Shown here one piece after another: positions 11,123-48,023 of a stretch of DNA of 48,023 bases; the first letter of the stretch is position 1, and every line of letters starts with the position of its first letter. Below the pieces are notes generated by a model. That model had not been told where the DNA came from and ran no database searches. It worked only from the letters and a program-made list of their open reading frames with translations. The stretch lies in NCBI GenBank assembly GCA_040754375.1, contig JBFMCT010000025.1:1-48023 (forward strand), written 5' to 3'. The translations under genes and the position numbers were made by a program. This DNA comes from Actinomycetota bacterium. Lineage in GTDB: Bacteria; Actinomycetota; Acidimicrobiia; Acidimicrobiales; AC-14.

Positions 11123-11148
11123 CTACAGTCCCTACAGCGTACCTACAG
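11123..11148. promoter_or_regulatory. Three CTACAG repeats upstream of RHH-DUF433 antitoxin
   Basis: CTACAG at 11123-11128, 11132-11137 and 11143-11148 (CTGTAG on the coding strand), spaced 9 and 11 bases apart. Same-direction repeats of this kind are typical sites for ribbon-helix-helix repressors. Confidence 0.55.
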
Positions 11149-11149
11149 A

Positions 11150-11263
11150 CGCACGAGGGCGGCCAGGCGTTCCTTGGGCTCGGGCGTGCTGCCTTCGCCC
11201 AGCAGGTAGCACCACGACTCCTCGGCCCCCCGGCCGACCCGTCCCCGCAGCTGGTGGAGCTGG
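11150..11263 (-). pseudogene. Displaced fragment of recG
   Basis: This 114-base stretch matches 14259-14372 inside the intact recG with six mismatches and no gaps. It encodes QLHQLRGRVGRGAEESWCYL and the following LLGEGSTPEPKERLAALVR, helicase motif VI and the segment after it, followed by a stop. It is in the same orientation as the real gene, 3.1 kb away, and is joined without a stop to the IS110 remnant upstream. No promoter or helicase core accompanies it. Confidence 0.85.
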
Positions 11264-11844
11264 CCCCAACCCACTTCAGGCCGGAAGATCGGGCAGGACG
11301 AGAAGGGACTCCTCCTCGGTGACTGCGAACGCCTCGATCGCTTCTCTGCGTTTCGAGGAGCACCTGGAGGATCGTTGGGCGCGGTGAACCCGAGGTGGCG
11401 GATCTGGTTGAGCGAGCTGATCCTCGTCGAGCGGGCCGACCGCCTCGACGTTGCCGTCGCGGGTCTTCCCCGCCCCCTGGGCTCGGCCCGACAGGGCGGC
11501 CCGTGCCGCCTCCACGGCATCCGCGGGATCGGAGTTACCGCTGCGCCGGCGTGCCTGGCGGTTGGGGCGGTCAACCTCGACCACCGCGATGTACGCGGCC
11601 CGCAGCGCCCGAGCCAGGCCCGCTCCGTACGAGCCGGTGCCCTCGACGCCGACCTGGGCGACCTCGCCGAAGGACCGCAGCCACCGCAGGAGCTTGTCGT
11701 TGCCGGCGCGAGAGGCTTCGAGCTCTCCACGCCCAGCAGTGCGCCGATGTGGTCCAGGGCGGCGGCCACGTGCACGTCGAGGTGCGTGTCGACACCGCCC
11801 GTCACGGCGCGCGCGGCCGCGGGCTCTACGATGGTCATCGCCAT
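11264..11844 (-). pseudogene. IS110-family transposase remnant
   Basis: The N-terminus reads VTGGVDTHLDVHVAAALD, containing the first Asp of the DEDD transposase, then GALLGVES. After that the reading frame changes at 11720/11721, where one T appears to be missing (AGCTCGAA where AGCTTCGAA is expected). The next frame continues EASRAGNDKLLRWLRSFGEV, VGVEGTGSYGAGLARALRA, VVEVDRPNRQARRRSGNSDP and AVEAARAALSGRAQGAGKTR. A second frame change and a small deletion precede NQIRHLGFTAPND. The catalytic C-terminal half and the element ends are absent, so it is dead. Confidence 0.85.
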
Positions 11845-12041
11845 CCCTTCTCTCTCAAACGGTCAAGGGGTGGCACGCGGCGCCCCATGTGCGCGGCGCC
11901 GGTGCGATCGTCCTGTTGGCGCAGGACGATCCGCCGCTCTCAGCGACGCCCTCGCCCGGCGCTGGGCGATGCCTCGGATGGGGTTCGCCCTTCCAGCGGG
12001 CATCGAAAGCGATGACCCGCACCTACTGGCCATGCGCCAGT
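11845..12041. other. Intergenic/remnant region without a supported gene
   Basis: Lies between the IS110 remnant start and the end of the propeller gene at 12042. A short plus-strand opening (MGFALPAGIESDDPHLLAM and onward to 12073) overlaps the stop of the propeller gene and matches nothing I know. It may include flanking DNA of the lost insertion element. Confidence 0.4.
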
Positions 12042-13097
12042 TCACCAATCGACCCCCCGAAACGCTCCGGTGATCGCCGTCGGCTGTGTGGCACCGTCGG
12101 GGCCAACCATCATCAGGATGCGGGTCGTCGTCGGAACCAGAACCCAGCCGCCCGACGCATCGGCCGAAAGACTGGTCGGTGCCCGCCCGCCGAGGTCGAT
12201 CACCTGTTGCGGGGCGCCGTTGGCAGCAACCGATCGGACGACAGGCGCCAAGCCCGGTGCCTCCTCGACAACCAGCATAGAACCGTCAGCCCGAAGCACG
12301 GGTGAACTCCAGGTACGGCCCGAGGGCACGATGACCTCCCGGGCATTGACCATGCTCGTCTCACCGGCGCCCACCAGAAAGACTCGCCCTTGTGCTCCGA
12401 CGGCCAGTTGCTGGCCGTCGGGCGACCAGCCAACCGAACTCAGTGCGCCTGAGAGGTCCGGCCGGTTCTTTATCACGTCGACCACTCCTCCATCGAGGGT
12501 TAGGAGTTTGATGCCAAGCACCGCGTCAACGATGGCGACAGTAGTCCCGTCGGGACTCACTGCTGGCGACTTGCCGTCAGCCACCAGGACAGCACCGCCG
12601 CCGCCGGTGGGCACCACACGGGTCGACCCGACAGCCGGTGAACAGCAGGTCGAGTAGAAGACCGATCGTCCATCGGGCGTTACCGCCAATCCTCCGAGTG
12701 CCGAAGCCGCTCCCTCGCTCGACGATCGGTTTGTCCCCGACATGCGTAGCAACTCGCGCTGCTCGACGCCGGTCGCGACATCAAGGACGACGAGGCGGCC
12801 GTCATCGGTGGAACCGACGGCAAGGACAGGCGGCTGAGCTGGAACAGCCAAGGTCGTCGGGCTCCGTGGTACACCGGTTGTGGCGATCGGTGGGGCCGTC
12901 GGGCTCGGCAGACGGGGTCCGGTCTGCGGTGAAGTGCTCGGCTCGGCCGCCGGACCTTGGCCACCCACGCGGACGGTGTCGCTACCGCGGTCAAGCAACA
13001 GGACGCCTCCGACCAGCAACGCCACGAGGATCACGACGGCAGATGCCCCGAGCGTTCTGAACGATCGATGCGGTTCGCCGTATTCGACACGCCTCAT
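12042..13097 (-). CDS. Membrane-anchored WD40/TolB-like propeller, probably frameshifted sigma partner
   Basis: 351 residues from the ATG at 13097: a hydrophobic helix (about 18-36), a Ser/Pro-rich stretch to about 85, then a propeller with blades such as GGLAVTPDGRSVFYS, SPAVSPDGTTVAIVD and SVGWSPDGQQLAVGA. The start shown is probably not the original. An ATG at 13183 overlaps the stop of a sigma-factor fragment and reads MTSPRDEVRLALHAEAS, after which the frame that continues into this gene reads SELQPEGWYSV. A one-base loss near 13132 would explain this. If so, it was the membrane partner of an ECF sigma factor, like the pair at 8296-9602. Confidence 0.65.
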   Translation of the reverse strand: MRRVEYGEPHRSFRTLGASAVVILVALLVGGVLLLDRGSDTVRVGGQGPAAEPSTSPQTGPRLPSPTAPPIATTGVPRSPTTLAVPAQPPVLAVGSTDDGRLVVLDVATGVEQRELLRMSGTNRSSSEGAASALGGLAVTPDGRSVFYSTCCSPAVGSTRVVPTGGGGAVLVADGKSPAVSPDGTTVAIVDAVLGIKLLTLDGGVVDVIKNRPDLSGALSSVGWSPDGQQLAVGAQGRVFLVGAGETSMVNAREVIVPSGRTWSSPVLRADGSMLVVEEAPGLAPVVRSVAANGAPQQVIDLGGRAPTSLSADASGGWVLVPTTTRILMMVGPDGATQPTAITGAFRGVDW

Positions 13098-13747
13098 AAC
13101 GCTGTACCAACCTTCCGGTTGCAGCTCGGAGCGCTCGCCTCGGCGTGCAGTGCCAACCGGACCTCGTCCCTCGGACTTGTCATCGCAACTCCTCGAGCCG
13201 TTTCGTCAGTGTTCGTCGACTTCGGTGGAGGCTGGACTTCACCGAACCGATACCCATGCCCACAACTTCGGCGATCTCCGCGGTCCTCACGAGCACGCCG
13301 CCGTGATAGCGCTAGACGTCGAAAGTGGTTCCGGCTGAGATTGACCACCGCGTCAGATCGAAAGTACCACCGGATCGGATCGGCGCCGTAAGAGTCGTCG
13401 AAGTGGATGTGGTTCTGATGGTCGACGTTGTACCACCCCGTAAGTACGATTCCGAAGAACCGCCGAAGACTCGCGGCGATAGCGAGGTACTTTCTGGTCC
13501 AGAGGACGTGGCTACAGCCCGCTGGATTCCAGTCCACATTCATTTCTACGAAGTTCCCGTTCCGGAACATGATCTGAGTCGAGTCCTTCGAGGCGATCAC
13601 GTAATCGTGCTGCCGCGCGTAATCCCAGATCGCGCGATCGGCGGCCGTGTCGAGGTCGAGCGCCGTGAGCGTGGGTGCTCCGGGGAACACATCTCGAAGT
13701 CGTTCGACAAGGCTCCTCGGAAGGTTCTGGTCGAACAGGAACCTCAC
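13094..13747 (-). pseudogene. Chimeric ORF: DUF5615 head, extensin/M15-like piece, ECF sigma piece
   Basis: One open frame of 217 codons made of unrelated parts. Residues 1-56 (MRFLFDQNLPRSLVERLRDV, HDYVIASKDS) are the first half of a DUF5615 toxin. Residues about 57-130 (NPAGCSHVLWTRKYLAIAAS, then GWYNVDHQNHIHFDDSYGAD) resemble extensin-like/M15 cell-wall proteins with an HxxHxHxDD metal motif. Residues 131-150 (AVVNLSRNHFRRLALSRR) are the end of ECF sigma region 2. The tail is out of frame with the sigma region 4 that follows. The start overlaps the DUF433 gene (ATGA). Toxin function is unlikely because the C-terminal half is missing. Confidence 0.7.
13180..13308 (-). pseudogene. ECF sigma region 4 fragment
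   Basis: In a frame different from the chimeric ORF, the minus strand reads YHGGVLVRTAEIAEVVGMGI and SVKSSLHRSRRTLTKRLEEL up to a TGA at 13180. This is a typical region 4 helix-turn-helix. It is missing the roughly 60 codons that should connect it to the AVVNLSRNHFRR piece at 13316-13354, so an internal deletion with a frame change has occurred. The stop overlaps the old start of the membrane-propeller gene (ATGA). Confidence 0.8.
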
Positions 13748-13962
13748 GCCGTGGCGAGGCGGCGTTCGCGTTGCGCTGCGAATTCGATGGCCGCACGGAC
13801 GTGCTCAAGTGTCAGCTCAGGGAACTCGGCGACGATCTCCTCGGCGGTCATCGGTGAGGCCAGGTACTCGAGCACGTCGTAGACCGCTATCCGGGTGCCT
13901 ATGAAGCAGGGCTTGCCGCTGCGAACGCCGGCTCGGGCCTCGTTGATCGTGGTCAGGTCCAC
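13744..13962 (-). CDS. DUF433 antitoxin
   Basis: 72 residues from a GTG start. GKPCFIGTRIAVYDVLEYLA and MTAEEIVAEFPELTLEHVRA are the DUF433 signature, a helical fold of antitoxins that pair with DUF5615 PIN-like proteins. It overlaps the chimeric ORF by ATGA, which keeps the head of a DUF5615 gene. The antitoxin therefore seems intact while its toxin has been broken by fusion. It is possibly leaderless: TACCGT lies a few bases upstream of GTG. Confidence 0.85.
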   Translation of the reverse strand: MDLTTINEARAGVRSGKPCFIGTRIAVYDVLEYLASPMTAEEIVAEFPELTLEHVRAAIEFAAQRERRLATA

Positions 13963-13999
13963 CCATCACGGTAGACGACGGCGCGCCGCCTCCACGGGT

Positions 14000-16105
14000 T
14001 CAGCTCTTGAACAGGAACTCGGCCTCGTCGGGGTCGATTAGGAGGCCGACCTCCTCGCGCAGCAGGGCGTGGCCGGCCAGGGTGGGGTCGTTGTCGACGA
14101 TGTCGAAGGCCACATCGCGGGCACGGGCGACCCACTCGCGGTCGCGGCGCAGCGAGGCCAGCTTGAGGTCGCTGTGGCCCTTCTGGCGGGTGCCCAGCAC
14201 GGTGCCCTCGCCCCGGATGTCGAGGTCGACCTCGGCCAGTTCGAACCCGTCGGTGGTGCGCACGAGGGCGGCCAGGCGTTCTTCGGACTCGGGCGTGCTG
14301 ACCTCGCCCAGCAGGTAGCACCACGACTCCTCGGCCCCCCGGCCGACCCGGCCCCGCAGCTGGTGGAGCTGGGCGATGCCGAACCGGTCGGCGTCCTGCA
14401 CGAGCATGACGGTGGCGTTGGGCACGTCGACGCCGACCTCGATGACGGTGGTGGCCACCAGCACGTCGAGCTGGCCGGACCGGAAAGCCGCCATGGTCGC
14501 CTCCTTCTCCTTCGACGGCATCTGCCCGTGCAGCAGCCCCAAGCGCAGTTCCGGCCAGACCTCGGCCGACAGGCGGGCGTACTCGGCCTTGGCCGAGCGG
14601 GCCGCCACCCGTTCGGACTCCTCCACCAGGGGGCAGACCACGTAGGCCTGGCGCCCGGCCGCCACCTCGTCGGCCACCCGGCCGTAGGCCTCCGACTGCT
14701 CCAGTTCGCCCCGCAGCCACCGGGTCTTGACCGGGCGGCGCCCAGGCGGTAGCTCGTCGAGCACGGTCACGTCGAGGTCGCCGTAGACGGTCATGGCGGC
14801 CGTGCGGGGGATGGGCGTGGCCGTCATCACCAGCACGTCGGGGTCGTTGCCCTTGCCCCGCAGGGCGGCCCGCTGCTCCACCCCGAACCGGTGCTGCTCG
14901 TCGATGACGACCACCCCCAGGTTGGCGAAGGCCACGTGTTCCTCCAGCAGGGCGTGGGTGCCGATGAGCAGGTCGACGCTCCCGTCGGCCAGGCCCTCGG
15001 CCATGCGGGCCCGTTCGGAGGCGGTCGTGCGGTTGGTGAGGACGGCCGTGCGCAGCGGGCGGTCGCCACTGAGGGTGCGTTCGTCAGGGACGGCCAGTTC
15101 GCCCAGCATGGCCCGCACCGCCAGCCCGTGCTGTTCGGCCAGCACCTCGGTGGGAGCCATGAGCGCCCCCTGGTAGCCCCCCTGCACGCCCATGAGCAAG
15201 GCGGTCACGGCCACCAGCGTCTTGCCCGAACCGACGTCGCCCTGGAGCAGGCGGTGCATGGGGTGGGGCCCGGCCAGGTCGGCGGCGATCTCGGTGATGG
15301 CCCGGCGCTGGGCGCCCGTGAGCTCGTAGGGCAGTGACGCGTGGAACCGCCGGACCAGCTCGCCCTCGACCCGGTGGGCCACGCCCTTGGACTCGCGTTC
15401 GATGGCCCGCTTGCGCATGACGAGGGCGAGCTGCATGCGCAGCAGCTCGTCGACCACCAGGCGGCGCCGGGCCGCCTCGGCCGCCCCCATCGACTCGGGG
15501 TTGTGGATGTGGCGGAAGGCCCACGTGCGGTCGACCACGTCGAGCCGGTCACGCCACACCTCGGGCAGGGCGTCGGCCATCTCCCCGGCCCGGGCCAGGG
15601 CCTCGTCGACCAGCTTGGCCAGCTCCCAGGTGGCCAACCCCTTCTCGGACTGGGGGTAGAGGGGCACGATGCGCCCCGTGCGGTCCCCCACCAGGTCGAC
15701 CACCGGGTTGGCCATCTGGCGCCGGCCCTGGTAGGCCTCGACCTTGCCGAAGAAGGCCGCCTCGGTCCCCACCGGGAGCTGCTTGGCCCGCCACCCCTGG
15801 TTGAAGAACACGCACCGCAGGTAGCTGGAACCGTCGAACACGTCGACGTCGACCATGGCCCGGCCCTGGCGGGTACGGCGGGACTGCACCCGCTTGACCT
15901 TGGCCAGGACCAGGGCTTCGCTGCCCACCCGCAGCTCCCGGATCGGCACCTGGCCCGTGCGGTCGAGGTAGCGCCGCGGGTAGTGGGTCAGCAGGTCGAG
16001 CACGGTCGTGATGCCCATCGACTCCAGGGCGGCCGCCTTCTTGGCCCCCGCCCCCGCGAGGGCGGTCACCGGGATATCGGCAAGCTGGGCCAGCCGGCGG
16101 GCCAT
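14000..16105 (-). CDS. recG: ATP-dependent DNA helicase RecG
   Basis: 701 residues from ATG at 16105 (MARRLAQLADIPV); longer openings upstream run into low-quality sequence and are rejected. The N-terminal wedge/OB domain spans about 1-240, with YPRRYLDRTG and an OB fold for branched DNA. The helicase core has Walker A GDVGSGKT (about 286-293), a DEQH-type box (VVIDEQHRFG, about 395-400), TATPIPRT, and motif VI QLHQLRGRVGRG. RecG reverses stalled forks and processes recombination intermediates. It lies downstream of the DAK2/YloV gene, a common actinobacterial order. Bases 14259-14372 are duplicated as a fragment at 11150-11263. Confidence 0.97.
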   Translation of the reverse strand: MARRLAQLADIPVTALAGAGAKKAAALESMGITTVLDLLTHYPRRYLDRTGQVPIRELRVGSEALVLAKVKRVQSRRTRQGRAMVDVDVFDGSSYLRCVFFNQGWRAKQLPVGTEAAFFGKVEAYQGRRQMANPVVDLVGDRTGRIVPLYPQSEKGLATWELAKLVDEALARAGEMADALPEVWRDRLDVVDRTWAFRHIHNPESMGAAEAARRRLVVDELLRMQLALVMRKRAIERESKGVAHRVEGELVRRFHASLPYELTGAQRRAITEIAADLAGPHPMHRLLQGDVGSGKTLVAVTALLMGVQGGYQGALMAPTEVLAEQHGLAVRAMLGELAVPDERTLSGDRPLRTAVLTNRTTASERARMAEGLADGSVDLLIGTHALLEEHVAFANLGVVVIDEQHRFGVEQRAALRGKGNDPDVLVMTATPIPRTAAMTVYGDLDVTVLDELPPGRRPVKTRWLRGELEQSEAYGRVADEVAAGRQAYVVCPLVEESERVAARSAKAEYARLSAEVWPELRLGLLHGQMPSKEKEATMAAFRSGQLDVLVATTVIEVGVDVPNATVMLVQDADRFGIAQLHQLRGRVGRGAEESWCYLLGEVSTPESEERLAALVRTTDGFELAEVDLDIRGEGTVLGTRQKGHSDLKLASLRRDREWVARARDVAFDIVDNDPTLAGHALLREEVGLLIDPDEAEFLFKS
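14259..14372. repeat. Parent copy of the 114-bp recG duplication
   Basis: Matches 11150-11263 in the same orientation, with 6 mismatches over 114 bases and no gaps. This copy is in frame in the intact recG; the other is embedded in transposon debris. Confidence 0.9.
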
Positions 16106-16170
16106 CGACCCCGACCGTAGCTCCCGCCGCCGCCCCGCCCCCGCCCGGGGCGGCCTCGTCCCGGTGGCGG

Positions 16171-17889
16171 CTACTCGGCGCTGAAGAGGTAGGCGGCCAG
16201 GGGCTGGTCGCCCCGCAGCACTTCGGCCTCCACGCCAGGACGGTGCTGGGCCAGCCACGCCTTGACGGCCCCGGTGGCGTCGTCGGTGGCCGCTGCCCCT
16301 TCGACGATCGTGACCAGTTCGTGGTCGTCGCCCACCAGTTGTTCGAGCAGGGCGCAGGCGCACTCGGCCAGCCCGGGGGCAACCGCCACCACGTCGTGGC
16401 CCAGGAAGGCCAGGTGGTCGCCCTCGTGTACCGGACCGGCCGGGGTGGTGGCGTCGCGCACGGCCCATGTGACCTCGCCCCAGGCCACGTCGTCGGCCGC
16501 GGCGGCCATGGCCTCGGCGTTGACCTCGGCGTCGGCCTCCGGGTCGAAGCCCATCATGGCCGCAAAGCCCTCGGCGATAGAGGTCGTCGGGACGACCTGC
16601 ACCGGACGGCTGGCCGCCTCGGCCGCCTTGTGGGCGACCGGGACGATGTTCTTGTTGTTGGGCAGCAGCACCACACCCTCGGCGTTGCTGGCCTCGATGG
16701 CGGCCAGCAGCTCGGCCGTCGACGGGTTCATCGACTGGCCCCCGGCCACCACCGACCGGGCCCCCAGCGAGGCCAGGATGCCCGTGGCCCCCTCGCCCGA
16801 CGCCACCGCCACCACCGCGGTCGTCACCGGCTCAGCCGGGGCCGGGGCCGGGGCCGGGGCTGCGGCCGCGGCCGGGGCCGTTGCAGGGCCGGCCGTTGCG
16901 GGGCCGGCAGCCGTGCCCGTGGCGGTGGCCTCCTCGGCCTCGCGCTCGCACTGCTCGTGGGCCACCTGCTCGGCCAGGTCGGTGACCCGGATGCGGGTGG
17001 GCCGGCCGGCCTCGACCCCGGCCTCGATGGCCGCGCCGATGTCGTCGGTGTGGATGTGGCAGTTCCACAGCCCGTCCCCACCCACGATGGCGATCGAGTC
17101 ACCCACGTCCATCCACGCCGCCTTGAAACCCTCGACGGCCCCGTCGTCGGCCGCCAGCAGGAACATGACCTCGTAGCGCAGGTCGCCGACCGAGCCGTGC
17201 CCGTCACCGGTGGTCATTGCGTGGGCCGCCACCGGCCCGGCGGCTGCCGCAGCCGGGGCCGCGGGCAGGGCCCGGCCGTCTACCACCTGGAGCAGGGCGT
17301 CGATGAGCAGCAGGTAACCGGCGCCCCCGGCGTCGACCACCCCGGCCTCGGCCAGCACCGGCAGCAGGGTCGGGGTGCGGTCCAAGGAGGCCGCCCCGGC
17401 GGTGGCCGCGGCCTCCAGCACCGACACCAGCGTGGCCGACCCGTCCTTGGCCTCGACCTGGGCGGCCTCGGCCGCCTCCCGGGCGACGGTGAGGATCGTG
17501 CCTTCGACGGGGCGCATTACCGCCCCGTAGGCGGCCGTCGAGGCCTGGGCCAGGGCGTCCGCCAGGGCGGCGGCGTCGACCGTCTCGCGGTCGCGCAGGC
17601 CGTCGGTGAGGCCCCGCAGCACCTGGGACAAGATGACCCCCGAGTTGCCCCGGGCCCCCATGAGCGAACCGTGGCTGATGGCCTTGCACACGGCCGCCAT
17701 CTCGCCCCCGGCCCCCATCTCGGTCACCACCGACTCCAGGGTCAGGGCCATGTTGGTGCCGGTGTCGCCGTCGGGCACGGGGTAGACGTTGAGCCGGTTC
17801 AACCGGTCTTGATGGGCACGGAGGGCGTCGCGGTAGCCGCAGACGGCGGCCCGCAGCTCGGCGGCCCCCAGGTGGTCGAGCACGGTCAT
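16171..17889 (-). CDS. DAK2-domain (YloV/FakA-like) protein
   Basis: 572 residues from the ATG at 17889. The N-terminal DhaL/DAK2 domain has the Mg-ATP motif NVYPVPDGDTGTNM (34-47) and GARGNSGVILSQV (78-90). The C-terminal half (about 380-560) is the YloV/FakA-type domain (GATGILASLGARSVVAGGQS, NPSTAELL, LLPNNKNIVP). FakA proteins phosphorylate fatty acids bound to FakB/DegV partners; no DegV gene is seen here. A Pro/Ala-rich linker of about 40 residues (about 325-370) separates the halves. It lies immediately before recG on the same strand and diverges from rpmB. Confidence 0.9.
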   Translation of the reverse strand: MTVLDHLGAAELRAAVCGYRDALRAHQDRLNRLNVYPVPDGDTGTNMALTLESVVTEMGAGGEMAAVCKAISHGSLMGARGNSGVILSQVLRGLTDGLRDRETVDAAALADALAQASTAAYGAVMRPVEGTILTVAREAAEAAQVEAKDGSATLVSVLEAAATAGAASLDRTPTLLPVLAEAGVVDAGGAGYLLLIDALLQVVDGRALPAAPAAAAAGPVAAHAMTTGDGHGSVGDLRYEVMFLLAADDGAVEGFKAAWMDVGDSIAIVGGDGLWNCHIHTDDIGAAIEAGVEAGRPTRIRVTDLAEQVAHEQCEREAEEATATGTAAGPATAGPATAPAAAAAPAPAPAPAEPVTTAVVAVASGEGATGILASLGARSVVAGGQSMNPSTAELLAAIEASNAEGVVLLPNNKNIVPVAHKAAEAASRPVQVVPTTSIAEGFAAMMGFDPEADAEVNAEAMAAAADDVAWGEVTWAVRDATTPAGPVHEGDHLAFLGHDVVAVAPGLAECACALLEQLVGDDHELVTIVEGAAATDDATGAVKAWLAQHRPGVEAEVLRGDQPLAAYLFSAE

Positions 17890-44660: not shown

Positions 44661-45329
44661 TCAGTCCTCGTCGGGCAGGCGGGTGACGGGTGAAGCCCCT
44701 TGCTGGACCGTGTGGGCCAGCTCGTGGGCCAACAGGCGCATGCCGCCCGTGCTGGCCGTGTCGGGCATGCCGTCTCGGAAGTAGACGTCGCGGCCCACGG
44801 TGAACGCCCGGGCCGCCATGGTGTCGCTCAAGGCCGCGGCCCGGGCCCCGGTGTGGACCCGCACGGCGCTGAGGTCGGCACCGAACGCCCCGCCCAGGTC
44901 AGACTGGAGGGCGGGGGCCAGCGGACGGCCGCCGCCCTGGGAAGTGCGCAGAGCCGCCTCGGTGGCCGCCCCGAGCTCGCCCCCTTCGAGGCCCACCTCG
45001 GCCACGGTGCCCCCGTTGTCATGGTCGTGGCCCGCGGCGGCGCGCCACACCGGCAACCGGCGGACGGTGGTCGCCCGTTGCGCCCCGGGTGCCGGGGAAC
45101 GCAGGGCCCGCACCACGTCGAGGGCGGCGGCGTCGGCTTCGCGCTCGAGGGGGTCGTCGGTGTGGCCCACCCGCAACGAGCGCTGGGCCACGGCCACCAT
45201 GCGGGCCACGGCCCGGTTGCCGGCCGCCTGCTGCAGGTGCACCCCCACACCGCGGACCGCTCCCTCAGCCACACGTCGGCCTTGCCGCTCGACGCCCCGG
45301 TGGTCCCGCCCCTGCCTCGCCCGTGACAT
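44661..45329 (-). CDS. DUF4157 (eCIS core) metallopeptidase-like protein
   Basis: 222 residues from ATG at 45329. LQQAAGNRAVARM, then VGHTDDPLEREADAAA and, at 135-210, the DUF4157 domain: FGADLSAVRVHTGARAAALS, AFTVGRDVYF and the zinc-type LLAHELAHTVQQ (His202-Glu203, His206). DUF4157 is the mark of proteins associated with extracellular contractile injection systems, normally at the head of a larger cargo. Here the protein ends 16 residues after HELAH, with no cargo. No sheath, tube or baseplate gene is in the window. It could be an orphan or a protease in its own right. Confidence 0.8.
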   Translation of the reverse strand: MSRARQGRDHRGVERQGRRVAEGAVRGVGVHLQQAAGNRAVARMVAVAQRSLRVGHTDDPLEREADAAALDVVRALRSPAPGAQRATTVRRLPVWRAAAGHDHDNGGTVAEVGLEGGELGAATEAALRTSQGGGRPLAPALQSDLGGAFGADLSAVRVHTGARAAALSDTMAARAFTVGRDVYFRDGMPDTASTGGMRLLAHELAHTVQQGASPVTRLPDED

Positions 45330-45497
45330 AAGCCCTCCAGCCGGGAGCCCGGCAAAGGTCGCCCACCCCGCGGGCGGGTACACCTTCACCCTACCGCCCG
45401 GGCACCGGCCCGACAACGAACCCGAAAGTGCTGGCAACAGGGGGGATTTCTGGCCCCGGACCGTTGACGGCTGGCCCCGTAGGCGCGACAACTAACC

Positions 45498-45797
45498 ATG
45501 AGCACCTACATCTGGCCCAACGACGACGGCTGGCCCTACCCGGACGCCGCCGCCGAGGTCGCCGACCCCGCGGCCGGGGTGGACGACGACGCAATGCTGC
45601 TCAAGGCGGCCCCCGCCCACCTGTTCGATTCGCTCGAACCGCTGGAGCGCGAGGTCGTGTTCGCCCACTACGGGCTCGACGGCGCGCCGCCCCGCTCGAT
45701 GAAGGAGCTCCACCATGCCATGGGGCTGAGCCGGGCCGAACTGCGCGAGGCGCTGGGCAGCGGCCTGGCCAAGCTCAGGGCCGACCTGTCGGCCTGA
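45498..45797 (+). CDS. Small sigma-70 region 4-like DNA-binding protein
   Basis: 99 residues. LFDSLEPLEREVVFAHYGLD followed by RSMKELHHAMGLSRAELREA and LGSGLAKLRADL matches region 4 of primary-type sigma factors, with no region 2. The N-terminus is acidic. It may bind DNA or RNA polymerase beside a full sigma factor. It diverges from the DUF4157 gene and converges on xth. Confidence 0.7.
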   Translation: MSTYIWPNDDGWPYPDAAAEVADPAAGVDDDAMLLKAAPAHLFDSLEPLEREVVFAHYGLDGAPPRSMKELHHAMGLSRAELREALGSGLAKLRADLSA

Positions 45798-45800
45798 GGA

Positions 45801-46577
45801 TCACAGGTCGAAGTCGACCAGCACCGGAGCGTGGTCGGAGGGCAGCTTGCCCTTGCGGGCGAACCGGTCGATAAGAGCGAACTGAGCCCTCTCGGCCAGC
45901 GGGCGGGTGGCCAGCATGAGGTCGATACGCAGGCCCCGGCCCTGGTGGAAGTCACCGGCCCGATAGTCCCACCACGAGTAGATGCCGGGTTCGGGGCGCT
46001 TGAGGCGGAAGGTGTCGACCAGGCCCCAGTCGAGCAGGTCGGCCACGGCCTGGCGCTCGGGCGGGCTCACGTGAGTCCCCCCGTGCAGCTTGGTCACGTC
46101 CCACACGTCACGATCGTCGGGCGCCACGTTGAAGTCCCCGGCGACCACCAGGGGGGCCTGGGCGTCGCAGGCCGAGACCATGTGGCGGTGCAGGCGACCG
46201 AGCCACTCCAGCTTCTCGTCGTAGTGCGAGCTACCCACCTGGCGCCCGTTGGGCACGTACACGCTGGCCACCCGTACCCCGGCGCACGTCGCCCACAGCA
46301 GGCGGGCCTCGGTCTGTTCGTCCTCGGCCTGGTCGGTGAACCCGGCCACCACGTCGGCCAGGCCCACCCGGCTGAGGATGGCGACGCCGTTCCACTGGCC
46401 CTGGCCGTGATGGGCGGACTCGTAGCCGAGCGCCCCGAACGTCAGGGCTGGGAAGGCCCCGTCGGCCAGCTTGGTCTCCTGCATGCACAGCACGTCGGGC
46501 TGGGCGTAGGCCAGCCACTCCTCGACCCGGGGCAGGCGGGCCTTGAGGGAGTTGACGTTCCAAGTGGCGATGCGCAC
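45801..46577 (-). CDS. xth: Exodeoxyribonuclease III (AP endonuclease)
   Basis: 258 residues. MRIATWNVNSLKARLPRVEE, CMQETKL, VVAGDFNVAPDDRD, YSWWDYR, GLRIDLMLATRPL and PSDHAPVLVDF give the full EEP catalytic set (Asn, Glu, Asp, Asn, Asp, His). It cleaves DNA at abasic sites. The start is 20 bases from the divergent DsbA/FrnE-like gene. Confidence 0.95.
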   Translation of the reverse strand: MRIATWNVNSLKARLPRVEEWLAYAQPDVLCMQETKLADGAFPALTFGALGYESAHHGQGQWNGVAILSRVGLADVVAGFTDQAEDEQTEARLLWATCAGVRVASVYVPNGRQVGSSHYDEKLEWLGRLHRHMVSACDAQAPLVVAGDFNVAPDDRDVWDVTKLHGGTHVSPPERQAVADLLDWGLVDTFRLKRPEPGIYSWWDYRAGDFHQGRGLRIDLMLATRPLAERAQFALIDRFARKGKLPSDHAPVLVDFDL

Positions 46578-46597: not shown

Positions 46598-47209
46598 GTG
46601 ACCATCGACGCCGTCGTCTGGAGCGACTTCCTCTGACCGTGGTGCTACGTGGGCCTGGACCGGTCCGCCCTGCTGCGCGACCTCGGGGTCACGGTCGTCA
46701 GCCTCCCCCTGGAGATCCACCCCGAGATCCCCGTCGGCGGCCTGACGTTGGCCGACCGCTGGGCGAGCCGCTACGGCGAGGCCTTGGAGATGTACGAACG
46801 GATCGAGACGGCCTGCCGTGCCGCGGGGATGGCCTTCCACCGCCCGGCCCGCGTGCCCAACACCCGCCGGGCCCTGGAGACAGCCGAGTGGGTGCGGGTC
46901 AACGAACCCCACCTGTTCCTGCCCGTCGAGCGGGGCCTGTTCGAGGCCCACTTCGTCGACAACCGTCCCCTTGACGACCCTGAGGTGGTCGACGCCGTGC
47001 TGGTGGACTGCGGTGCGGGGGCGGCCGCCGCCCGCCAGGCCGTCGAGGCCGGCGAGATGCAGGCACCTCTGGCCGCGGCCGCCACCCTGGCGGGCGAGGT
47101 GGGCGTGACCGGCACGCCCGCCTGGCTCGTAGCCCGCCAGATCCTCGTCCCCGGCGCCCTGCCTCCCGGCGTCTTCCGCCAGGTCGTGAGCCAGGTCCAG
47201 TCCTCCTAA
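46598..47209 (+). CDS. DsbA/FrnE-family protein, probable selenoprotein (U-P-W-C)
   Basis: Reading from GTG at 46598, the protein begins MTIDAVVWSDFL, meets an in-frame TGA at 46634-46636, and continues PWCYVGLDRSALLRDLGVTV to the TAA at 47207. FrnE/DsbA proteins have DFxCPWCYxG at exactly this place, so the TGA replaces the first redox cysteine (residue 13), the classic sign of selenocysteine. The rest is intact: cis-Pro loop GVTGTPAWLV, and a C-terminal GALPPGVFRQVV. The length, 203 residues with U, fits the family. Bases 46651-46670 can form a GGGC/GCCC hairpin whose tip has GGTCC, 14 to 33 bases after the TGA, a plausible bacterial SECIS. A gene call starting at 46649 would lose the active site. 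Confidence 0.8.
46637..46672 (+). promoter_or_regulatory. Candidate bacterial SECIS element
   Basis: Directly after the TGA. GGGC (46651-46654) pairs with GCCC (46667-46670) and GGA (46657-46659) with TCC (46664-46666), leaving CCGG in the tip with GGT across the closing pair. Bacterial SECIS elements are short hairpins in this distance range with G residues (often GGU) near the tip. The fold is by eye only. Confidence 0.45.
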
Positions 47210-47287: not shown

Positions 47288-48023
47288 CTATCCGGCCGGC
47301 TGGGCCCGTCGGCCACGGGCCGCCTTCTTGGCCGCTTTCGCCGGTGCAGGGCCCTCCTGGGCAGGGAGGCCCGCCGGCTTACGGGCTCGGCTCGTGCGCG
47401 CCGCCGGGACGGCCTCCCCGGCACCGACCACCGCGGACCTCTTGCTGGGCGGCACCGCCTTGCCCGAGCGCCGGGCCGCCTTGGCCGGTGCCTCCGGAGC
47501 CAGACCGCCGTCGTCCCCCGACGGCCCCGGCTGGGGCGGGGCGGCCTTTCGCGGCCGGGCAACCGGCACGTCGCTCGGCTCGGTCCCACCGGAGCCCGCA
47601 CCCCGAGAGGCGGGCCCCTCGGCCTTGCGGGCACGGCCCGCGCGCTTGGCCGGGGCCCCGGCGGTGGCCGTGTTCGAGGGCTCGTCGGCCGTGGCCGCCT
47701 TGGAGCGGCCCGGCGAGCGCTTGGCCGGCGGCTCATCGGTGACGGCCCCGGTACTGGCGGGAACGGTACTGGCGGGCACGGTACTGGCGGGGGTCCCGCC
47801 CACCACGGCCTCGCCGGCACGGCCCGGGCGCACGCCCGCGGCACCGGCGGCCGCGTCAGCCGGCCCGGCTGGGCCCACTTGGGCGGCCGCCTTGCGGGGC
47901 CGCTTGGCCGCAGGGCCCCCCATCACCGCCCCGGACGCGGTGGTGCCCTCCTCGGCCTGGGCCGCGGCCTTGGTGGCTCGCCGGGAGCGCTTGGCCGGCG
48001 GCCCGTCGGGCGCGGGGGTGGAG
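47288..48023 (-). CDS. Lys/Ala/Pro-rich basic protein (partial, N-terminus outside window)
   Basis: The frame is open from the stop at 47288 to the window edge, at least 245 codons; an ATG at 47926 is internal because the same composition continues upstream (PPAKRSRRATKAAAQAEEG). It consists of repeats around PAKR or PRKAA every 25-30 residues (PAAKRPRKAAAQ, PPAKRSPGRSKAA, APAKRAGRARKAEG, APAKAAKKAARGRR). This is like the basic tails of actinobacterial HU or H1-like nucleoid proteins, but no HU core is within the window, so the identity stays open. A 15-base repeat encodes PASTV units in the middle. Confidence 0.6.
   Translation of the reverse strand, partial: STPAPDGPPAKRSRRATKAAAQAEEGTTASGAVMGGPAAKRPRKAAAQVGPAGPADAAAGAAGVRPGRAGEAVVGGTPASTVPASTVPASTGAVTDEPPAKRSPGRSKAATADEPSNTATAGAPAKRAGRARKAEGPASRGAGSGGTEPSDVPVARPRKAAPPQPGPSGDDGGLAPEAPAKAARRSGKAVPPSKRSAVVGAGEAVPAARTSRARKPAGLPAQEGPAPAKAAKKAARGRRAQPAG
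47751..47791. repeat. 15-bp tandem repeat in the Lys/Ala-rich gene
   Basis: GTACTGGCGGG at 47751, 47766 and 47781, period 15, in frame, encoding Pro-Ala-Ser-Thr-Val. Confidence 0.85.

What the first reader, a model, noticed from the sequence alone, without database searches (positions are those of the whole stretch)
46598..47209. DsbA/FrnE-like gene with TGA at the first redox cysteine: a probable selenoprotein
Seen: GTG at 46598 opens a frame reading SDFL-stop-PWCYVG, then 190 further sense codons to TAA. Known: FrnE/DsbA-family oxidoreductases have DFxCPWCYxG here; in bacteria selenocysteine is encoded by TGA and most often replaces a redox Cys. The stop falls exactly on that residue and both sides keep the family pattern with no frameshift. 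A hairpin with G residues at the tip follows the TGA at a distance suitable for SelB. Inference: a UPWC thiol/selenol oxidoreductase, which implies a selenocysteine system in this genome.
Basis: partly seen in the sequence, partly recalled or inferred. Interest (0 to 1): 0.88.

Follow-up and report, generated by a model that had tools for sequence, protein, structure and literature searches.

The report
FrnE-type selenoprotein in an acidimicrobial actinobacterium
The stop codon inside this gene is very probably read as the 21st amino acid, selenocysteine, making a disulfide-handling enzyme with selenium in its active site; this kind of selenoprotein was already known from other bacteria.

Summary
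Observation and reading both hold. GTG 46598 opens a 203-residue FrnE/DsbA frame whose codon 13 is TGA, exactly at the first residue of the CPWC motif (UPWC); 190 sense codons and TAA follow. The host genome has adjacent selA and selB, selD and a tRNA-Sec, and three further genes with TGA at Sec-like sites. TGA is at the same column in 22 of 89 homolog-bearing genomes of the order and in 68 of 80 species loci from five or more lineages; the other 12 have Cys codons. The hairpin 46649-46668, loop 19 nt after the UGA, is no better than chance alone, but pairs covary in relatives, and it is more regular in TGA than in Cys genes. Fold prediction gives FrnE. DsbA-like UxxC selenoproteins (PF01323, COG2761) have been in print since 2005, so this is a new member of a known kind. 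Smaller new points: a divergent exonuclease III neighbour in most of the clade, and a sister gene with Cys that keeps the hairpin.

The parts
46598..47209 (+). FrnE/DsbA-family oxidoreductase gene, GTG start, 203 residues with Sec13, TAA stop
   Evidence: PF01323; Deinococcus FrnE, E 9.5e-12; predicted fold = FrnE
46634..46636 (+). in-frame TGA read as selenocysteine, first residue of the U-P-W-C motif
   Evidence: same column TGA in 22 order-level genomes and 68 of 80 species loci
46643..46645 (+). TGC, Cys16, the second (resolving) residue of the active-site motif; invariant in the 30 rows of alignment A3 (five homologs outside A3 have Ala here)
   Evidence: exceptions
46649..46668 (+). bacterial SECIS-like hairpin: 7-bp stem 46649-46655/46662-46668, loop UGGACC 46656-46661
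   Evidence: compensatory changes in relatives
45801..46577 (-). exodeoxyribonuclease III (xth), divergent neighbour, 20 bp between the two starts; neighbourhood conserved in most of the clade (context, not shown to be part of the mechanism)
   Evidence: (TIGR00633, 257 bits)

Best explanation
The gene encodes a FrnE-type thiol/selenol-disulfide oxidoreductase, probably cytosolic. SelB carrying GTP and Sec-tRNA(Sec) binds the hairpin that starts 12 nt after the UGA and delivers Sec at codon 13 instead of termination. Sec13 lies at the N-terminus of the first helix of a thioredoxin-like fold as the attacking residue of U-P-W-C; it attacks a substrate disulfide (or oxidised thiol), and Cys16 resolves the mixed selenenylsulfide. 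Shown by computation: reading frame, machinery, column conservation, hairpin covariation, predicted fold. Inferred: Sec incorporation itself, cytosolic location (nothing that looks like a signal peptide precedes the first strand; no predictor was run) and the redox cycle. Substrate and reductant are unknown; the conserved divergent pairing with exonuclease III suggests, weakly, a place in the oxidative-damage response.
For: selB 273 bits, selA 409 bits, selD 347 bits, all over curated cut-offs; the SelB protein has the SelB winged-helix domain; tRNA-Sec 65 bits, and ARAGORN names it tRNA-SeC, anticodon tca. Three other own-genome genes have TGA in Sec-like contexts (contexts recalled): two FdhA-like, NRT-U-HAP and ARI-U-HSS, and one AhpC/TlpA-like, APH-U-PTC. 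TGA is the ordinary stop of 8 of 9 other window frames checked, so no general reassignment is indicated. TGA in the same column: 22 of 89 homolog-bearing genomes out of 298; 68 of 80 species loci, the other 12 TGC or TGT. Hairpin: 63 of 63 cells paired in 9 close TGA genes, 2 of 7 pairs with changes on both sides, covariation score reached by 3 of 500 shuffles; in 58 distinct rows of more distant TGA genes 97.5% of 406 cells paired and 30 cells with double changes, 0 of 500 shuffles as high. Hairpin of -4 kcal/mol or better in 77 of 77 TGA genes against 12 of 21 Cys genes, median -10.4 against -4.6. Fold: pLDDT 96.9; ranks 1-6 in the PDB are FrnE of Deinococcus radiodurans (five entries) and SCO1869.
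Against: The window's own hairpin is not better than shuffled sequence and only weakly better than synonymous recodings (p 0.087); only 22 of 77 TGA genes (and 2 of 21 Cys genes) reach p 0.05 singly. On the measure 'pairs with a change on both sides' 31 of 500 and 128 of 500 shuffles did as well, and on 'further pair types' 31 and 213 of 500; the stems were read from these same sequences, which favours them. The FdhA-like genes fall below the TIGR01591 cut-off (638 and 164 bits against 666). Two of 22 TGA-bearing genomes showed no selA: G172, which has a tRNA-Sec, and G170, which shows neither selA nor a tRNA-Sec over the cut-off and is 83% complete. TGA form and selA: 8 of 9 TGA against 6 of 12 Cys genomes in the close clade, Fisher p 0.078; with the f59 group 18 of 19, p 0.007; relatedness not corrected for. 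The -4 threshold and the demand for a G in the loop were set by me. No expression or protein data.
Confidence: 0.96

Rival explanations
1. Sequencing or assembly error: the true codon is TGC/TGT (Cys) or TGG.
For: The window lies in a draft assembly of 105 contigs; one base change would give Cys. The relative G115 has TGC at this position.
Against: Other assemblies, by their titles from different projects, have TGA at the same column: 68 of 80 loci, among them named strains of Archangium, Myxococcus and Pyxidicoccus; the hairpin covaries.
Confidence: 0.01
2. Pseudogene: the TGA is a real stop that ends the protein after 12 residues, or translation restarts downstream (GTG 46649) to give a shortened protein without the motif.
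For: A 186-residue frame from GTG 46649 exists mechanically. TGA is the ordinary stop of 8 of 9 other window frames checked.
Against: No other stop or frameshift in 190 codons; the DSBA match is continuous through the TGA; the stop falls in one column in dozens of genomes, on the catalytic Cys; a restart at 46649 would lose strand 1 and both motif residues. The genome has the genes to decode UGA as Sec.
Confidence: 0.02
3. UGA is read through as another amino acid (Trp or near-cognate Cys), not Sec.
For: None found.
Against: Complete Sec machinery and three further TGA genes in Sec-like contexts; SECIS-like hairpin in TGA genes; TGA ends 8 of 9 other window frames checked, so a general reassignment is not indicated.
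Confidence: 0.01

Closest known systems
DsbA-like selenoprotein, form 1 (PF01323, UxxC; COG2761 in the Sargasso Sea paper; 'DsbA 1/2' of the GOS survey)
   Same: Same Pfam domain and same UxxC motif with Sec at the first position; the Sargasso Sea paper's figure legend names a predicted SECIS for it (PMC1088965, PMC2398784, PMC13188914; passages read). That COG2761 is the FrnE cluster is recalled.
   Different: The passages seen name no acidimicrobial members; the sequences named there were not available here, so sub-clade identity was not tested.
FrnE of Deinococcus radiodurans (PDB 5cnw, 5co3, 5cp1, 5xwh, 5coh) and SCO1869 of Streptomyces (3gl5)
   Same: Best sequence and fold matches: E 9.5e-12 and 9.3e-9, TM 0.87-0.88 over the query; CPWC aligned to UPWC.
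   Different: Cys in place of Sec; the Deinococcus protein is longer and carries a further C-terminal Cys pair (recalled; a C239S mutant entry is seen) that the window protein lacks.
DsbA-like selenoprotein, form 2 (PF01323, DxxUP)
   Same: The window's D-F-L-U-P also fits the string DxxUP (table passage, PMC13188914).
   Different: The window also has the second Cys (UxxC), the motif listed for form 1; form 2 sequences were not seen.

Membership tests
Bacterial selenoprotein | in-frame UGA at a conserved redox Cys column, with Cys homologs | tested here: met
   TGA in 68 of 80 loci, Cys codon in 12 of 80
Bacterial selenoprotein | selA, selB, selC (tRNA-Sec), selD in the genome | tested here: met
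Bacterial selenoprotein | SECIS hairpin just downstream of the UGA, G at the tip | tested here: met
   (conservation and covariation); the window's own folding energy alone is inconclusive. The hairpin criteria are recalled.
Bacterial selenoprotein | selenium present in the protein | not testable with these tools
   needs mass spectrometry or 75Se labelling
DsbA/FrnE (PF01323) | domain match over the curated cut-off | tested here: met
   75.3 bits against 25.6
DsbA/FrnE (PF01323) | C/U-P-W-C at the N-terminus of helix 1 and a conserved Pro of the cis-Pro loop | tested here: met
   positions 13, 16 and P174 invariant in 30 rows, U written as C; helix starts at residue 14; the cis geometry itself was not measured
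FrnE sensu Deinococcus | additional C-terminal Cys pair | tested here: not met
   Cys only at 16, 73 and 138 of 203; the feature itself is recalled. So it is called FrnE-type, not a full equivalent of Deinococcus FrnE.
FrnE fold | overall fold | tested here: met
   ranks 1-6 are FrnE/SCO1869, TM 0.87-0.88

The most novel reading that the evidence does not exclude
Sec is the older and prevailing state in this actinobacterial-Chloroflexota FrnE subfamily, and Cys forms such as that of G115 are derived losses that can still show fossil SECIS hairpins; the enzyme forms a functional pair with exonuclease III, tying a selenoenzyme to repair or signalling of oxidative DNA damage in Acidimicrobiia.
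Probability: 0.2. Interest if true: 0.5.

Novelty: new member of a known kind. Interest (0 to 1): 0.32.

Why it matters
A gene caller that treats TGA only as a stop would cut this protein or start it after the active site, so a redox enzyme present in many uncultured bacteria can go unnoticed. The acidimicrobial clade holds Sec and Cys forms side by side, including a Cys form with the hairpin still in place in a genome that keeps selA and tRNA-Sec, so the reason for keeping or dropping selenium could be tested with close pairs.

Tried and rejected
Folding the window stretch alone gives no support for the hairpin; support came only from relatives. Rfam has no match in the window at the gathering threshold. 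The NCBIfam scan gave only sub-threshold matches for the protein (18.4 bits against a cut-off of 190, and 15 against 215). 'FrnE' with 'selenoprotein' gave 9 papers, none on this to judge by titles and abstract starts (listing); 'selenocysteine' with 'Acidimicrobiia' gave one, a sponge microbiome paper (listing, not opened); 'COG2761' with 'selenoprotein' gave only the Sargasso Sea paper. The selA/TGA association is weak inside the close clade and is not used as main evidence. Plasmid records hold only partial matches: 12 records, none with a place covering 80% of the query.

Full report
What is in the sequence. GTG 46598 opens a frame with TGA as codon 13 (46634-46636), then 190 sense codons and TAA 47207-47209. 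With the TGA read as Sec the protein is 203 residues long and begins MTIDAVVWSDFL-U-PWCYVG. PF01323 (DSBA) matches residues 6-195 at 75 bits; the genome-level search matched the same place through the TGA. The only solved-structure sequences matched at E <= 0.001 are Deinococcus FrnE (two distinct sequences) and Streptomyces SCO1869, whose CPWC aligns with UPWC. AlphaFold2 on the 30-row alignment A3 gives mean pLDDT 96.9; residue 13 directly precedes helix 14-28; Foldseek ranks FrnE entries 1 to 5 and SCO1869 sixth.

The genome can make Sec. G000 (3,510,701 bases, 105 contigs, 97.5% complete) has selB (273 bits against a cut-off of 242) and selA (409 against 268) next to each other on contig C9, selD on C17 (347 against 125) and a tRNA-Sec on C20 (65 against 47; ARAGORN: tRNA-SeC, tca); protein-level scans confirm SelB with its winged-helix domain and SelA. 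Two FdhA-like genes (C17, C50; both below the TIGR01591 cut-off) and an AhpC/TlpA-like gene (C10, over the PF00578 cut-off) have in-frame TGA in the contexts NRT-U-HAP, ARI-U-HSS and APH-U-PTC; that these are classical Sec contexts is recalled. A ninth, sub-threshold PF00578 match with a TGA (C36) was not looked at.

Relatives. In 298 genomes of the order, 89 have a match at E <= 1e-10 and 22 of these have an in-frame TGA in a match. All 22 have it in the UPWC/UPFC column: the close group G000, G197, G172, G025, G055, G135, G091, G259, G136; ten genomes of family f59; and G191, G297, G170. A scan of the species collection with alignment A1 (built without the Sec residue) found 91 relatives and kept 80 loci; the codon is TGA in 68, TGC in 10, TGT in 2. 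Twelve of the 80 are contigs already met. The scan needs one of two peptide patterns of the query's own clade, so 68 of 80 is not a frequency for FrnE proteins at large: in the order-level search the other 67 of 89 genomes have matches without a stop, most of them more distant. Record titles of TGA loci name Acidimicrobiia/Acidimicrobiales, Chloroflexota, Dormibacterota, Deltaproteobacteria and Myxococcota (Archangium, Pyxidicoccus, Myxococcus) and Thermoleophilia. On a tree of 54 chosen rows (34 Sec, 20 Cys) the label needs five changes (4-6 in bootstraps), unrooted, so the older state is not shown. The window's nearest neighbours are Sec apart from G115 (L028), which has TGC but the same 7-bp hairpin in a genome with selA and tRNA-Sec: most simply a recent change to Cys, though the fork that joins it to its sister is weakly supported (88/24).

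The hairpin. In the window the stem is 46649-46655 with 46662-46668 and the loop UGGACC begins 19 nt after the UGA. In nine close TGA genes all 63 cells pair; pair 18-33 is C-G in seven and G-C in two (the window and G259), through synonymous changes in a Val and a Ser codon, and pair 20-31 is G-U in eight and C-G in G136. In 59 more distant TGA genes (58 distinct) a seven-pair stem in nearly the same place has 97.5% of 406 cells paired and 30 cells with changes on both sides (0 of 500 shuffles as high); slides of 1-3 columns pair at most 56% of cells. Two measures do not stand out: pairs with a change on both sides (31 and 128 of 500 shuffles as high) and further pair types (31 and 213 of 500). 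A search for the best hairpin with a G among the first two loop bases gave -4 kcal/mol or better in 77 of 77 TGA genes and 12 of 21 Cys genes; medians -10.4 and -4.6; median p against synonymous recoding 0.096 and 0.43; p <= 0.2 in 63 of 77 and 6 of 21. Against this: only 22 of 77 TGA genes reach p 0.05 singly, as do 2 of 21 Cys genes; L130 is no better than its recodings (p 0.70); the window itself stands at 0.087. Left out: 12 loci that duplicate contigs, and five TGA matches not fetched at that point.

selA and the Sec form. 185 of 298 genomes of the order have a selA match, 175 over the cut-off. Among homolog matches with 95 bits or more, 8 of 9 TGA genomes and 6 of 12 Cys genomes have selA (p 0.078); adding the ten f59 genomes gives 18 of 19 (p 0.007). 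G191 and G297 (selA present), G170 (absent) and Cys matches under 95 bits were not in that count. G172, the close TGA genome without selA, has a tRNA-Sec, so a gap in its 630-contig assembly is likely. G170 has neither over the cut-off and remains unexplained (83% complete).

Neighbourhood. The divergent neighbour is exodeoxyribonuclease III (TIGR00633, 257 bits), with 20 bp between the two starts. By my count, an xth homolog lies divergent and within about 200 bp in 18 of 24 genomes of the acidimicrobial clade (Sec and Cys forms; two partial genes, G024 and G259, were placed in the clade by similarity, not by the tree), 1.3-2.4 kb upstream in 4 (G172, G259, G007, G273), is not seen in 1 (G197) and cannot be judged in 1 (G025, contig end). 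The other loci searched gave no hit, some with short flanks. A shared role in oxidative damage is inference only.

What is known. Passages read: PMC1088965 lists nine DsbA-like UXXC selenoproteins under COG2761; PMC1794560 lists four DsbA-like selenoproteins, Anaeromyxobacter among the organisms; PMC2398784 lists DsbA 1 (63 sequences), 2 and 3; the 2022 and 2026 reviews (PMC9312934, PMC13188914) list the DsbA-like PF01323 UxxC family among predicted selenoproteins. So the kind is known. A report for Acidimicrobiia was not found in the listings, which cover open papers only; their papers were mostly not opened.

Verdict. A genuine, well supported selenoprotein gene of a known kind; ordinary as a kind, useful as a clean case with Sec/Cys neighbours and a conserved gene pair.

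Noticed in passing
window 45801-46577 (-) and 46598 (+): xth and the DsbA gene are divergent with only 20 bp between their starts, which leaves little room for two promoters; leaderless transcripts are a possibility (inference). The pairing is conserved in most of the acidimicrobial clade.
   Followed up: partly
window 44661-45491 (-): Protein with an eCIS core domain (PF13699, 92 bits), by its name linked to extracellular contractile injection systems; no such system was looked for nearby.
   Followed up: no
window 45498-45797 (+): 99-residue protein without Pfam match, conserved near this locus in 3 other genomes, G135, G172 and G091 (50-58% identity; L030/L057, L055, L067).
   Followed up: no
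window 47288-48022 (-): Ala/Lys/Arg/Pro-rich frame running off the window end, without Pfam match; histone-H1-like tail in appearance.
   Followed up: no
window 11143-14000: G+C falls to 0.64 in 12001-14000 against 0.71-0.77 elsewhere, next to a frame (11143-11844) that by eye joins a transposase-like start to a piece repeated in the helicase frame 14000-16468: possibly an insertion or rearrangement.
   Followed up: no
L028 (G115) 1531-1590: Cys (TGC) homolog in a genome that has selA and tRNA-Sec, with the same 7-bp hairpin as the Sec genes: possible fossil SECIS.
   Followed up: partly
L041, L042, L043, L044, L068: Cys homologs with CPWA in place of CPWC, without the resolving Cys.
   Followed up: no
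L148 (G000:C10:7666-7962): AhpC/TlpA-like gene with APH-TGA-PTC, a further likely selenoprotein of this genome.
   Followed up: partly
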